Source: Acidobacteriota bacterium
GTDB lineage: Bacteria > Acidobacteriota > Terriglobia > Terriglobales > Acidobacteriaceae
Assembly (NCBI GenBank): GCA_021800255.1
Contig: JAJYZC010000005.1
Span: 1-64,000 of the forward strand
DNA length: 64,000 nucleotides
Direction: 5' to 3'
The notes under the pieces are model-generated. The model was given only the letters and a program-made list of their open reading frames with translations, was not told the DNA's origin and did no database searches. How positions within the stretch are numbered: the stretch's first letter is position 1; each line of letters starts with the position of its first letter. A program made the position numbers and the translations under genes. Shown here piece after piece: positions 12,220 through 58,408 of this stretch.

Positions 12220-14430
12220 TCAGCCTCCGCTGTTCTCCGGAACGGATTCCACCATTCTCTTGAGCGGGCCCAGTACATCGAACTGCGTCAACGCGACCGG
12301 CTTGGCCGCCGCGTCAATTACCGCCAGTTGCTTCTGCTTCCATCCCTGCGGAGCGGCCTCGCCGGACGACAGATAGGAAACCGCCGCCACGCCAATCCGG
12401 CCCAACTGCGCCAGTTGTCCGGGACGAGCCCTGGCCTGGGCCAGCAACGGCGCGTGCTCCATCATCTTCATCACACCCGGCTCGGCGGCAATCCACTGCT
12501 CAAAAAGCTTCGTCAGCTTCATTCCGCTCGCCTGCTCTCTCCGTGGCGCCTGCAGGTACCTGGCCACCATAAGCTTAAAATCGTGCCGGAACGGAGGATC
12601 CGGCCGCAGCGCATCCACCCAGTGATCCAGCGGGTCATGGGTCGTAATCTTGTACTCGTTGGCGTGCCTGGCGCGCTGATTCCACGACACCGGCTCCATC
12701 GTTTTAGCCAGCACCCGCAACGGACCCAACTGTCCGGCGCCCGCCATCTGCCGCAGGCTCGACCACTCCTGGGAAATTTGCGTAAGTCCCAGCGATGCCA
12801 GCCGCAGCGACTCCACGTGCAACCGCCGGTACATGTCGTTCACGTTGTTTACGCTTCGCGGCGACCACAGCCGCTCGGCGATCGCCGCAGCCCGAGGCCA
12901 GATCCTCGAATCCACGGTCGTGCCGTCCACATACTCGCTCCACATACACGCTTCCCCGCCCAGAATCCGCTTCTTCTCGTCCGGCGTCAGCGTACTGCCC
13001 TCCGGAACCGGATCCACCTCGTAGTACTTTGAGGCGCGGGTCATATGATCCAGGTAATAGCCTGACGACAAAATTCCGTCGTGCCCTTGGCGCGCCGCCT
13101 TGGCTAGTGACTTGTAACCACGCCAGGACTGAATTGTCACGCTCTTCGGTAACCCCGGAACCAGCACCTCGTCCCAGCCGATCATCCGCTTGTGATACGA
13201 AGTTACAATCTTCAGCAGCCGCCGGTTGAAGTACGCCTGCAGCGCAGCCGAATTCTTCAGGTGGCGCTTCCGCATGAAGGCTTGAATCCGGGGATTCTCC
13301 CTCCACTCCACCCCGTTCACCTCGTCTCCGCCAATGTTGAAGTACGGACCGGGGAAAATCTTCACCATCTCCCCGATGAACTTGTTCAGAAACTGATAAG
13401 TGCTCTTCCGGGCCGGATCCAGCACCGGGTTAAAGACTCCGAAGCGGTCCTGAATATGAAACGGCCCCTTCGCGCTCGCGAGCTGCGGATACCCCACCAC
13501 CCACGAGCTGGTGTGTCCGGGCACATCGAACTCCGGCACCACGCGAATTCCACGCGCGTGCGCATAAGCCACAATCTCCTTTGCCTGTTGCTGCGTGTAG
13601 AACTTTCCGCCCGATCCATCTTTGGTCAGCAGCGGAAACACCTTGCTCTGTATCCTGAAGCCTTGATCGTCGCTCAGGTGCCAGTGCAGCACATTCAGTT
13701 TCACGGCCGCCATTCCGTTGATGATCTGCTTGATCTTGCTGATCGGAATGAAATGCCGGCTGCAATCTATCATCAGCCCCCGCCACGGAAAACGCGGGTG
13801 ATCCTGGATCGAAACCCCTGGTAAGAAATACTCCGTCCCGTTATTCTGCACCAGTTGCAGCAGCGTCTGCAGGCCCGCCAGCGCGCCCGCCACCGCCGGC
13901 GCATGCAGGTGAATCCCCTGCGAGGTCACCTCTAGTTGGTAGGACTCGTCAGCTATCACCGTCTGCACGGCCGCTCCCGGCCCATCCACGCTCACCACAA
14001 AGGCCGCGCCGTTGCTTGCTCCGTGCTTCACCTTGGTTGCAACAACAACCCCGGTCTGCTCCTTCAACTGCCTCATCGCGCGCGCAATCGCATGGTCCAA
14101 CCGCGCGTTATGGAACTTGTCCGTCGTCGCCGTCAATCCCGGCAGCAGCAGAAAATACCCCTGACCCACCTCCAGGCGCGCCGGCTCCGGCATCAGGTTG
14201 TTATGGAAGGCAAAGGGTGAAGAGCTGCTCCGCGCCATCGCCGGTGCAGCCGTCAGTACGGACAGCATCGCTACGCGCACAAGCCAGGAACCAGCCGTTG
14301 CGGGAGCGCCGCGTTTCTTGCGGAAAAGAGCCGGGATTCGATTCAACAGGATGGATTTTCCAGTCATTCCGATATCAATCTCAACAGGACTACACAATTT
14401 CCGAAAATGCCGTAGGCTATCTTTCAGCAA
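12220..14430 (-). CDS. GH20 beta-N-acetylhexosaminidase
   Basis: HPRFPWRGLMIDCSRHFIPI...LHWHLSDDQGFRIQSK...PYFNIGGDEVNG (GGDE catalytic pair), EAxMWSEYVD. The first residues probably come from repeat DNA, so the true start is likely 14367. Confidence 0.93.
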   Translation of the reverse strand: MLKDSLRHFRKLCSPVEIDIGMTGKSILLNRIPALFRKKRGAPATAGSWLVRVAMLSVLTAAPAMARSSSSPFAFHNNLMPEPARLEVGQGYFLLLPGLTATTDKFHNARLDHAIARAMRQLKEQTGVVVATKVKHGASNGAAFVVSVDGPGAAVQTVIADESYQLEVTSQGIHLHAPAVAGALAGLQTLLQLVQNNGTEYFLPGVSIQDHPRFPWRGLMIDCSRHFIPISKIKQIINGMAAVKLNVLHWHLSDDQGFRIQSKVFPLLTKDGSGGKFYTQQQAKEIVAYAHARGIRVVPEFDVPGHTSSWVVGYPQLASAKGPFHIQDRFGVFNPVLDPARKSTYQFLNKFIGEMVKIFPGPYFNIGGDEVNGVEWRENPRIQAFMRKRHLKNSAALQAYFNRRLLKIVTSYHKRMIGWDEVLVPGLPKSVTIQSWRGYKSLAKAARQGHDGILSSGYYLDHMTRASKYYEVDPVPEGSTLTPDEKKRILGGEACMWSEYVDGTTVDSRIWPRAAAIAERLWSPRSVNNVNDMYRRLHVESLRLASLGLTQISQEWSSLRQMAGAGQLGPLRVLAKTMEPVSWNQRARHANEYKITTHDPLDHWVDALRPDPPFRHDFKLMVARYLQAPRREQASGMKLTKLFEQWIAAEPGVMKMMEHAPLLAQARARPGQLAQLGRIGVAAVSYLSSGEAAPQGWKQKQLAVIDAAAKPVALTQFDVLGPLKRMVESVPENSGG
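14374..14414 (+). repeat. Dispersed 41-bp repeat, copy A (upstream edge of the GH20 gene)
   Basis: atcaatctcaacaggactacacaatttccgaaaatgccgta. Confidence 0.65.
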
Positions 14431-14527: not shown

Positions 14528-16204
14528 CTATAGCTTTTGGACCAGCACGGTTCCCCGCGACGCGCCTTCGATTGAGCCTTTCAGCACAACCTTGTAATTC
14601 ACGCCGGTTACGTCGATCAGCAGTGAACCGGGCGAGCCGGGAATCGTCTGCACCATCTTCGGATCGGCCTCTTCATCAAAAAGCGCCTCCACGTTGCGAA
14701 TTGCTCTCACTCGCCCCTTTTGCGGAATAAAATGCACCAGGTACTGCGCCGCTCTCGTAACCTGCCGGCTCAAGTCCACCTGAAATGTCGATCCAATCCA
14801 ATAACCCGCCGGAGCCGGCGCCCAAAGCTGGCTCGGAGCATCCCACCCCTTGGGCGGCGCCGCATGTGTATCGAATGCGGCGAAACGCAGAATCTCCGGC
14901 CGCCCCAGCGACTGGTTCACCGTCAGCCGAAGGGCCTCCACACTGGCCGGCTGCAGCGGCTGAATCCGCTTCACCCCAATCGAACTTCCCTCCGCCAGCG
15001 AATTCCACTGCCCGTCAGACAATCCCTCCACCTGATAGCGCAGCACCCTCTGGCCGAACCGGCAATCCTCCTGCAAGATGGCGTGGTCCACCCGCTGCGG
15101 CTTCGCAAAATGAATCGTCACTCTGCGCCCCACCCCGGAAGTCTCCGCCACCGGCTTGCTGAAGCGGCGGCGAATCTCCTCTCCAAACTCCTTGGCCCGC
15201 GCAAAATCCTCCTTCGCCATCCGTCCGGTCGTATTCGGCGGAACATTCAGCAGCAACTGAGCGCCCCGCCCCACCGAGCGGTAATACACCTCCAGCAACT
15301 GCTCCACCGTCATCAAATCCGTCAGGTTCGTCTTGCTCCAGTACCAGTCCGGACGCCGGATCGAAACATCGGCCTCTACCGGCATCCATACATTGCCATG
15401 CGGGGTGCTAAATCGCGCCGTGGATACCCCGGTGCTGGCCTCGGCCTCCGGCAGCGCGTTCCAGTTCGGGTAAGGCGCGAACCCGTTTTCATTGCCCACC
15501 CAGCGGATGGTCGCCTCCGGCCCTTGAAAAATCGCGGCGTGAGGAGCGTAGCGGGCAAGAATATCGGCCACCGGAATCACAATCGAACCGTCGAACCACA
15601 CCTCGACCATGGTGCTGTAACGCGAAAGCACCTCCGTCAACTGCTCCCGGTAAAGCGCGTTATAAGCCTTCTGCTCGGCCGGGGTCTTGCAGACTCCTCC
15701 CAAGCCGGCGCCGTGATACTTATCGCTGGGCGAAAGATACACGCCCAACTTCAGCCCGAACTTGCCGCACGACTTGCGCAGATCGCGCAGCACATCGCCA
15801 TGCCCGTTCTCCCATGGAATATGAGCAACGCTGTAGGATGTCGTCTTGGTTTGCCACCAGCAAAACCCTCCGGCATGCTTGGCCACGAACACGATATAGC
15901 GCGCTCCCAGGTTCAGGGCGCACTGCGCCCAGTTATCGGTGTCAATATCCGGATCGATCTCACTGAGCGGCGTGGACAGATTGTCGTATTCCCGGTTTTG
16001 CCAGGTCGCCGGTCCCAGATGAACAAACATGCCAAACTCCATCCGCTGCCACGCCAGTTGATCGGCGGTCGGTTTGGCCAGGTGTCCCGGCGCCGCGGCC
16101 ATCGGAATCGCCAGGGCTTCTTTCGTTCCAGACACGGCTGCGGCGGCCAGCGCCAGCGCTGAATCCAGCAAAAATATGCGGCGATTCACTAGAGCGCGCT
16201 TCAT
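14528..16204 (-). CDS. GH29 alpha-L-fucosidase, Tat-like signal
   Basis: MKRALVNRRIFLLDSALALAAAAVSG signal; WQRMEFGMFVHLGPATW, YIVFVAKHAGGFCWWQTKTTSYSV, MVEVWFDGS (nucleophile Asp in WFDG). Start MKRAL lies in a repeat TIR; ORF is open to 16297. Confidence 0.88.
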   Translation of the reverse strand: MKRALVNRRIFLLDSALALAAAAVSGTKEALAIPMAAAPGHLAKPTADQLAWQRMEFGMFVHLGPATWQNREYDNLSTPLSEIDPDIDTDNWAQCALNLGARYIVFVAKHAGGFCWWQTKTTSYSVAHIPWENGHGDVLRDLRKSCGKFGLKLGVYLSPSDKYHGAGLGGVCKTPAEQKAYNALYREQLTEVLSRYSTMVEVWFDGSIVIPVADILARYAPHAAIFQGPEATIRWVGNENGFAPYPNWNALPEAEASTGVSTARFSTPHGNVWMPVEADVSIRRPDWYWSKTNLTDLMTVEQLLEVYYRSVGRGAQLLLNVPPNTTGRMAKEDFARAKEFGEEIRRRFSKPVAETSGVGRRVTIHFAKPQRVDHAILQEDCRFGQRVLRYQVEGLSDGQWNSLAEGSSIGVKRIQPLQPASVEALRLTVNQSLGRPEILRFAAFDTHAAPPKGWDAPSQLWAPAPAGYWIGSTFQVDLSRQVTRAAQYLVHFIPQKGRVRAIRNVEALFDEEADPKMVQTIPGSPGSLLIDVTGVNYKVVLKGSIEGASRGTVLVQKL

Positions 16205-16300
16205 AGATGGCATTTGTGGCAAGCCAAGCTCCCGGGCGCCGGCCTGTTGCCGGGTCCCACACGTAGCAGAATCATCCGCATCGGGTATATGAGACACGCT
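16191..16300 (+). mobile_element. MITE-like 110-bp inverted-repeat element, copy 1
   Basis: Ungapped 110-bp alignment to 58239-58348 (90/110 identical by manual count); degraded TIRs agcgcgcttcata / tatgagacacgct. Confidence 0.7.
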
Positions 16301-16559
16301 GAATGCTCTCCGGATCCTTATATCTACTGTTTATCACGCTTCCTTTCACACTAACTGTCTCCGGCAATCCCTTGCCCTCGCGGGAAAACGCCGGCCTTCA
16401 CGAACTGGTATCCCCCGGCCTCGAACAGAGTCGAAATCCGCACTCCGCACGGCCCGCAGATGGTTGGCAGCGCGCCGTCACGCATAGCGCCAGAACGGCG
16501 CGCTGTGAAGATAACAATAACAGACAATTTGCAGCGAAAGAAGCAGCTCCCCAGACAGC

Positions 16560-36184: not shown

Positions 36185-36305
36185 AAGCAGCTATTAGCTC
36201 TCAGCTTTCAGCTTATTTTGCGCGAGGGCGAACAGCCGTGAGAGAGCGGAAATGTTCGATTTGAGCACCAAGAAGCTGAAAGCTGACGGCTGAAAGCTAG
36301 GAGAG
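36185..36305. repeat. AGCTGAAAGCT inverted-repeat intergenic element
   Basis: tctcagctttcagctt near 36198-36214 versus aagctgaaagctgacggctgaaagctag near 36271-36300. Confidence 0.5.
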
Positions 36306-57797: not shown

Positions 57798-58179
57798 AGC
57801 GCCGGCGGCGTTCACGTGCGCTCTCAAAGAGCGCGCTTGAAGCCATTTGCGTGAGGGAGATGCCGCCCCATGGTTCCTCATCTCCTCATCGGAAAAGCCT
57901 GATGAGAGGTCAGAGCTCGGAGGTGCGGTTTTGCCGGGATTTCCTGGTTTTGCCCTGTTTTTCCACAATCATAGATGCAAATGCAATTGCGTATAGTCAA
58001 AATCCCCTTGAAAATACTGCGGCGGCGAGTTAGGATGTAGGCTCCTAAGCAGAGAAAACCGGCCAATGCCGCGCTCCCAGCCGCCGTTTTGACGGCTGGG
58101 CATTTGGTATTTGAAGAAGTTCCGGTGCGATGCGTAGGAGCGTTGCCGGCAGTTCGCTTGATGAACCGGAGCGCGTTTT

Positions 58180-58220
58180 ACAGCATTTTTGGAGCTGGTG
58201 AAGTCCTGTTGAGATTGATT
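58180..58220 (-). repeat. Dispersed 41-bp repeat, copy B
   Basis: Reverse complement atcaatctcaacaggacttcaccagctccaaaaatgctgta matches 14374-14414 at 35/41. Confidence 0.65.
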
Positions 58221-58238
58221 TTCAAGGTGCAGCTTCTT

Positions 58239-58348
58239 AGAGCGTGTTTCATAAATGGCCGTTGTGGCAGGCCAAGCTTCTGGAACCCGGCTTGTTGCCG
58301 GGTTCCACACGAGACAGAACCATCCGCATTGGGTTTATGAAACACGCT
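58239..58348 (+). mobile_element. MITE-like 110-bp inverted-repeat element, copy 2
   Basis: Perfect 15-bp TIRs agcgtgtttcataaa (58241-58255) / tttatgaaacacgct (58334-58348); internal perfect 10-bp-stem hairpin ggaacccggc-ttgtt-gccgggttcc (58282-58306). Confidence 0.75.
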
Positions 58349-58380
58349 GTAGGGTTGCGGCGACTTGAGTATGTGCCTTC

Positions 58381-58408
58381 GGACTACAGTATTTCCGAAA
58401 ATGCGTTA
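58381..58408 (+). repeat. Dispersed repeat, partial copy C
   Basis: ggactacagtatttccgaaaatgcgtta matches copy A at 24/28. Confidence 0.55.

What the first reader, a model, noticed from the sequence alone, without database searches (positions are those of the whole stretch)
58180..58408. Composite palindromic element: MITE flanked by inverted copies of a second repeat
Copy 2 of the MITE (perfect 15-bp TIRs, internal 10-bp-stem hairpin) is bracketed by copy B (minus, 58180-58220) and partial copy C (plus, 58381-58408) of another repeat. A further copy sits at 14374-14414. The nested symmetric layout suggests a larger non-autonomous element of about 230 bp. I do not recognise it as a named family.
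Basis: seen in the sequence. Interest (0 to 1): 0.65.

Follow-up and report, generated by a model that had tools for sequence, protein, structure and literature searches.

The report
One small mobile element inside another
In this acidobacterium a 110-letter parasitic DNA element has jumped into the middle of an older, unrelated one, so the symmetric 230-letter structure is an accidental nesting of two (apparently unnamed, but ordinary) mobile repeats rather than one new larger element.

Summary
Element A (58240-58349) is a 110-bp MITE with perfect 15-bp inverted ends, and the genome holds 27 matches. The "second repeat" is the two ends of another, roughly 118-bp palindromic MITE, element B (45 matches, 26 near full length). 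A is inserted at a TA in the middle of one B copy. Removing exactly 112 bp (A plus one TA) restores a B element that aligns over 119 positions without a gap (103/119 identical). The 230-bp composite occurs once in this genome and in none of 70 related or outgroup genomes; A and B otherwise occur separately. A third family, C (about 40 copies, 92-100% identical), shares B's ends. Candidate helper transposons occur in congeners. A's ends match an 848-898-bp IS5/IS427-type IS. B's and C's ends resemble an IS630-type IS. Both make TA duplications. Intact helpers were not found in this draft genome. One congener shows a separate A-type insertion at the central TA of a C-like element, but flanks give no sign of palindrome targeting. 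No Rfam family explains any of it. This is an ordinary nested insertion of two new members of known MITE kinds.

The parts
58179..58180 (.). TA, left target-site duplication of element B
   Evidence: TA precedes the left end of 20 of 26 B pairs and 25 of 31 C pairs
58181..58239 (-).
   Evidence: 87% identical to B consensus positions 60-119
58238..58239 (.). TA, left target-site duplication of element A, lying near the middle of element B
   Evidence: Sequence; excision of 58240-58351 restores a gap-free B element
58240..58349 (+). Element A: 110-bp MITE with IS5/IS427-type ends, 15-bp perfect TIRs and an internal 11-bp-stem hairpin
   Evidence: 27 genomic matches; TIR pairs; folding z -6.6; ends match complete IS427-like ISs in congeners
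58350..58351 (.). TA, right target-site duplication of element A
   Evidence: Sequence; excision test
58352..58406 (-).
   Evidence: 89% identical to B consensus positions 1-57
58407..58408 (.). TA, right target-site duplication of element B
   Evidence: Sequence
14374..14415 (+). Truncated B element (42 bp of one end only)
   Evidence: 95% identical to B consensus 79-120; the rest is absent
16190..16301 (+). Second, older copy of element A in the window
   Evidence: 82% identical

Best explanation
The structure is a nested insertion of two unrelated MITEs. Step 1 (inferred): an IS630/Tc1-mariner-type transposase acting in trans inserted the roughly 118-bp element B at a TA in the intergenic region between two TonB-receptor-like genes, duplicating the TA. 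Step 2 (insertion shown by the excision test and TA duplications; enzyme inferred): an IS5-family, IS427-group-like transposase acting in trans inserted the 110-bp element A at a TA in the middle of B, again duplicating TA, and split B into two inverted halves. The symmetry arises because A and B are each palindromic and A landed near B's centre. The composite does not move as a unit. Nothing here shows a host function; as a long hairpin in an intergenic spacer it could at most affect transcripts passively.
For: (1) Excising 58240-58351 (A plus one TA) gives a B element aligned to the consensus over 119 positions without a gap, 103 identical. (2) B ends are normally 85 bp apart start to start, e.g. 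C34, C68 and C25; here 197 = 85 + 112. (3) A (27 matches), B (45 matches, 26 near full length) and C (about 40 full copies) occur independently; the 231-bp composite is unique in 71 genomes. (4) TA flanks both ends in 16/26 B and 23/31 C pairs; among eight high-identity A copies (L001-L006, L008, L009), five show TA on both sides. (5) Candidate helper for A: 898-bp and 848-bp ISs in G061 and G060, bounded by TA-GAGCGTGTTTCAWAAA on both ends, with an IS5-family transposase (Pfam DUF4096 and DDE_Tnp_1). The G061 copy reads it in two frames. IS427-group elements of Paracoccus are 832-865 bp, mostly with 2-bp duplications, and some carry two overlapping ORFs (PMC3281130). (6) Candidate helper for B/C: an IS630-type IS of about 1.05 kb in G035, ends TA-GAGCATTTTAGTAAATAGTGTAGAC and TA-GAGCGTTTTAGGAATTACTGTAGACC, resembling B's GCATTTTCGGAAATACTGTAGACC, with HTH_33 and DDE_3 domains. 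IS630-family ISY100 inserts at TA and duplicates it (PMC2170065).
Against: No intact helper for either element was found in this 102-contig draft: IS5-type relatives here are decayed or distant (best 65% identical with stops), and the IS630-type hits are 28-42% identical. A shares only about 16 terminal bases with the IS5-type ISs. The B-to-IS630 end match is imperfect (CGG versus AGT/AGG after GCATTTT) and rests mainly on one complete IS. Only 6 of 20 A pairs keep TA on both sides. The six syntenic relatives lack A and B between the same genes, but the spacers are too diverged to show the empty site base by base.
Confidence: 0.94

Rival explanations
1. A single larger non-autonomous element of about 230 bp, with B halves as outer ends and A as its core, that moves as a unit.
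For: The whole 231 nt folds as one long hairpin (z = -7.0), and TA lies outside B on both sides. G023 has a similar layout: an A-type MITE inside a C-like element.
Against: The composite is unique in 71 genomes; the ordinary B copies lack A, and most A copies lack flanking B; removing A plus TA restores B without a gap. The G023 case has a different A-type core and a different host element.
Confidence: 0.03
2. A palindromic repeat mobilised by a REP-associated (Y1, RAYT) transposase.
For: Repeats are short and palindromic; the genome has three Y1_Tnp loci, one with a B copy nearby.
Against: TA duplications and paired terminal inverted repeats fit DDE transposases; two of the three Y1 loci carry no A, B or C and the third has one ordinary B copy on one side only; complete DDE-type ISs with matching or similar ends exist in congeners.
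Confidence: 0.02
3. A structured RNA, such as a riboswitch, attenuator or terminator, of the downstream TonB-receptor-like gene.
For: Strong hairpins 5' of a TonB-receptor-like gene.
Against: No Rfam hit near threshold (best inside the element 17.6 bits against a cut-off of 45); dozens of dispersed copies with TA duplications mark insertions; no terminator-like site found; A and B not detected at the syntenic spacers of six relatives.
Confidence: 0.01

Closest known systems
RUP (repeat unit of pneumococcus), 107-bp repeat with IS630-Spn1-like ends (PMC3049150)
   Same: Like B and C: about 107-118 bp, high copy number, ends resembling an IS630-family IS; [quoted passage not shown]
   Different: Different host (Acidobacteria versus Streptococcus), and no sequence relationship was seen or tested; the IS630 helper was seen in a congener, not in the same genome.
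IS427 group of the IS5 family, e.g. IS1248 and ISPaes1 (PMC3281130)
   Same: Candidate helper of A: 848-898 bp, roughly 15-16-bp ends, TA duplication, IS5-family transposase read in two frames in the G061 copy.
   Different: A is a 110-bp non-coding derivative sharing only the termini; the group assignment of the acidobacterial IS rests on Pfam and architecture, not on an ISfinder comparison.
ISY100, IS630/Tc1-mariner family (PMC2170065)
   Same: Candidate helper type of B and C: DDE transposase, near-exclusive use and duplication of TA targets.
   Different: A full IS, whereas B and C carry no gene; sequences not compared directly.
REP/RAYT systems and BIMEs
   Same: Short, abundant palindromes.
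   Different: A, B and C have paired terminal inverted repeats and TA duplications and do not flank a Y1 transposase gene as its ends.

Membership tests
MITE (A, B and C) | Short (<~500 bp), no transposase gene, terminal inverted repeats | tested here: met
   110 and ~118 bp; TIRs recovered in paired copies; too short to hold a transposase gene
MITE (A, B and C) | Many dispersed copies | tested here: met
   27 A matches, 45 B matches, about 40 full C copies
MITE (A, B and C) | Target-site duplication | tested here: met
   TA on both sides in 16/26 B and 23/31 C pairs; 6/20 A pairs, mostly the high-identity copies
MITE (A, B and C) | Mobilised in trans by an IS with the same ends | not testable with these tools
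   ISs with matching or similar ends found, but mobilisation needs an assay
IS5 family / IS427 group (helper of A) | Element termini shared with an IS5-type IS | tested here: met
   TA-GAGCGTGTTTCATAAA at both ends of G061:C668:6370-7267
IS5 family / IS427 group (helper of A) | IS5-type transposase of about 270 aa in a roughly 0.85-kb element | tested here: met
   DUF4096 and DDE_Tnp_1 over Pfam cut-offs, using a joined query sequence; two frames in L080
IS5 family / IS427 group (helper of A) | Intact helper in the same genome | tested here: inconclusive
   Only decayed or distant relatives found, but the assembly has 102 contigs
IS630 family (helper of B and C) | Element termini shared with an IS630-type IS | tested here: inconclusive
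   G035:C290 ends resemble B ends over about 25 bp but with internal differences, and only one complete IS was read
IS630 family (helper of B and C) | HTH and DDE_3 transposase between those ends | tested here: met
   HTH_33 and DDE_3 over cut-off
IS630 family (helper of B and C) | TA target | tested here: met
   context is CTAG-like
REP/RAYT | Repeat flanks a Y1 transposase gene as its ends | tested here: not met
   Two of three Y1 loci without A, B or C; one with a single ordinary B copy
Rfam RNA family | Score above the gathering cut-off | tested here: not met

The most novel reading that the evidence does not exclude
IS427-type MITEs preferentially enter the central TA of IS630-type MITEs, so that the two families form recurrent nested composites across this genus and one family prunes the other.
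Probability: 0.06. Interest if true: 0.4.

Novelty: new member of a known kind. Interest (0 to 1): 0.18.

Why it matters
It removes a candidate new composite element. It also defines three apparently unnamed MITE families in an Acidobacteriaceae genus, with candidate helper ISs of two unrelated transposase families. Family C, at 92-100% identity over about 40 copies, looks recently amplified and would be useful for annotation and for studying activity of non-autonomous elements in Acidobacteria. The insertion order (B first, then A) is a small clean example of relative dating by nesting.

Tried and rejected
Composite element moving as a unit: rejected because the 231-bp query is unique. REP/RAYT mobilisation: rejected. 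Known RNA family: rejected. Preference of A, B or C for palindromic targets (suggested by two insertions near hairpin tips): not supported; flank self-complementarity was at or below the permuted expectation (P = 0.96, 0.61 and 0.76). Base-by-base empty site in relatives: tried with six syntenic loci, but the spacers are too diverged to align. DDE_3 (IS630) transposase loci in the own genome with B ends: none found among four loci.

Full report
OBSERVATION. The sequence is as described. Positions 58240-58349 form a 110-bp element (A) with exact 15-bp inverted ends AGCGTGTTTCATAAA and an internal hairpin (11-bp stem; single-strand folding z = -6.6). Around it lie inverted copies of another repeat, with a further partial copy at 14374-14415. 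A has 27 matches in the 3.36-Mb genome. The end motif of the other repeat occurs 58 times at up to three mismatches against none for the reversed control. The nearest named relatives found for a neighbouring gene are Acidobacteriaceae.

WHAT THE SECOND REPEAT IS. Many copies of the second repeat come in inverted pairs 85 bp apart start to start. Reading them out shows a roughly 118-bp palindromic element, B, with ends TA-NNGCATTTTCGGAAATACTGTAGACCG and a central hairpin. A consensus query finds 45 matches, of which 26 are nearly full length. A further family, C, has the same ends but a different core (GTGGATTTTTCTTGAGGAAAAATCCAC) and about 40 copies at 92-100% identity to the query. In the window the two B ends are 197 bp apart, which is 85 + 112.

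NESTING. Removing 58240-58351 (A plus one copy of TA) gives a sequence that aligns to the B consensus over 119 positions with no gap and 103 identities. A is therefore bracketed by TA-TA inside B, and B is bracketed by TA-TA in the chromosome (58179-58180 and 58407-58408). The full 231-bp composite is found only here in 71 genomes. Most other A copies sit without B around them, and other B copies are without A inside. So this is a sequential nested insertion, B first and A second, and the symmetry follows from two palindromic elements with A landing near the centre of B. In G023 a different A-type element sits at the TA in the middle of a C-like element, GGATTTTTCC-TA-AGGAAAAATCC. I tested whether insertions favour palindromic targets by permuting flanks; they do not. 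The TA context of B and C is CTAG-like (C before TA in 18/26 and 19/31, G after in 14/26 and 20/31).

HELPERS. The A end pattern, searched over 119 genomes (own, congeners and outgroups), found paired ends 848-898 bp apart in G060, G054 and G061. The two that I read carry an IS5-family transposase, with DUF4096 and DDE_Tnp_1 over their Pfam cut-offs. For the Pfam and genome searches I used a query joined across the frame change and, in G060, across a short run of N; it is a search query, not an observed protein. IS427-group elements of Paracoccus have the same size, mostly 2-bp duplications, and some have two overlapping ORFs (PMC3281130). For B and C, G035:C290 holds a roughly 1.05-kb element with similar ends around HTH_33 and DDE_3 reading frames; IS630-family ISY100 is known to use and duplicate TA (PMC2170065). 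A few IS630-type fragments in other genomes have a similar end nearby (e.g. L228, L250). In the window's own draft genome only decayed or distant relatives of either transposase were found, which may reflect loss or an incomplete assembly.

SHOWN AND INFERRED. Shown: anatomy, copy numbers, TA flanks, gap-free restoration of B, uniqueness of the composite, ISs elsewhere with matching (A) or similar (B, C) ends. Inferred: which enzymes moved A and B, that they acted in trans, and the absence of a host role. The syntenic spacers of six relatives contain no detectable A or B, consistent with insertion in this lineage, but they cannot be aligned base by base.

COMPARISON. B and C work like RUP, the 107-bp pneumococcal repeat with IS630-Spn1-like ends (PMC3049150), without any claim of descent from it. 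A works like an IS5/IS427-derived MITE. A literature search for MITEs in Acidobacteria returned five papers, none of which by title or abstract describes these, but the library holds open papers only and ISfinder could not be queried, so 'unnamed' is provisional. The finding is best filed as new members of a known kind.

Noticed in passing
L045 (G000:C98 ~42.0 kb), L022 (G000:C52 ~14.0 kb), L143 positions ~2584-2700 (G000:C59): A REP-like short palindrome (CACCCCAACGGCAAAGACCCGCCGTTGGGGNCCCCGG) occurs as three tandem copies at 42-bp spacing in L143, and similar sequences lie inside a B element and inside an A copy.
   Followed up: partly
L007 (G000:C15:32378) and L009 (G000:C82:50160): Two A copies share 649 bp at 96.8% identity from the MITE outwards on one side but have different sequence on the other, suggesting a duplication or recombination bounded by the MITE.
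   Followed up: partly
L140-L169 (own genome): Family C: about 40 nearly identical ~118-bp palindromic copies (92-100%), apparently the most recently active MITE here, with the same ends as B.
   Followed up: yes
G000:C51:11095-11414 (L010, L164): C element, A copy and a partial second A copy lie end to end; A abuts the TA at the end of C.
   Followed up: partly
G000:C73:12565-13091 (L259): A Y1 (REP-type) transposase gene with an ordinary B copy about 200 bp away; no A or B ends on both sides.
   Followed up: yes
window 36189-36298: Inverted repeat of 29 nt, 83% complementary with a 52-nt gap, built of AGCTATTAGCT/AGCTTTCAGCT-like units (I6).
   Followed up: no
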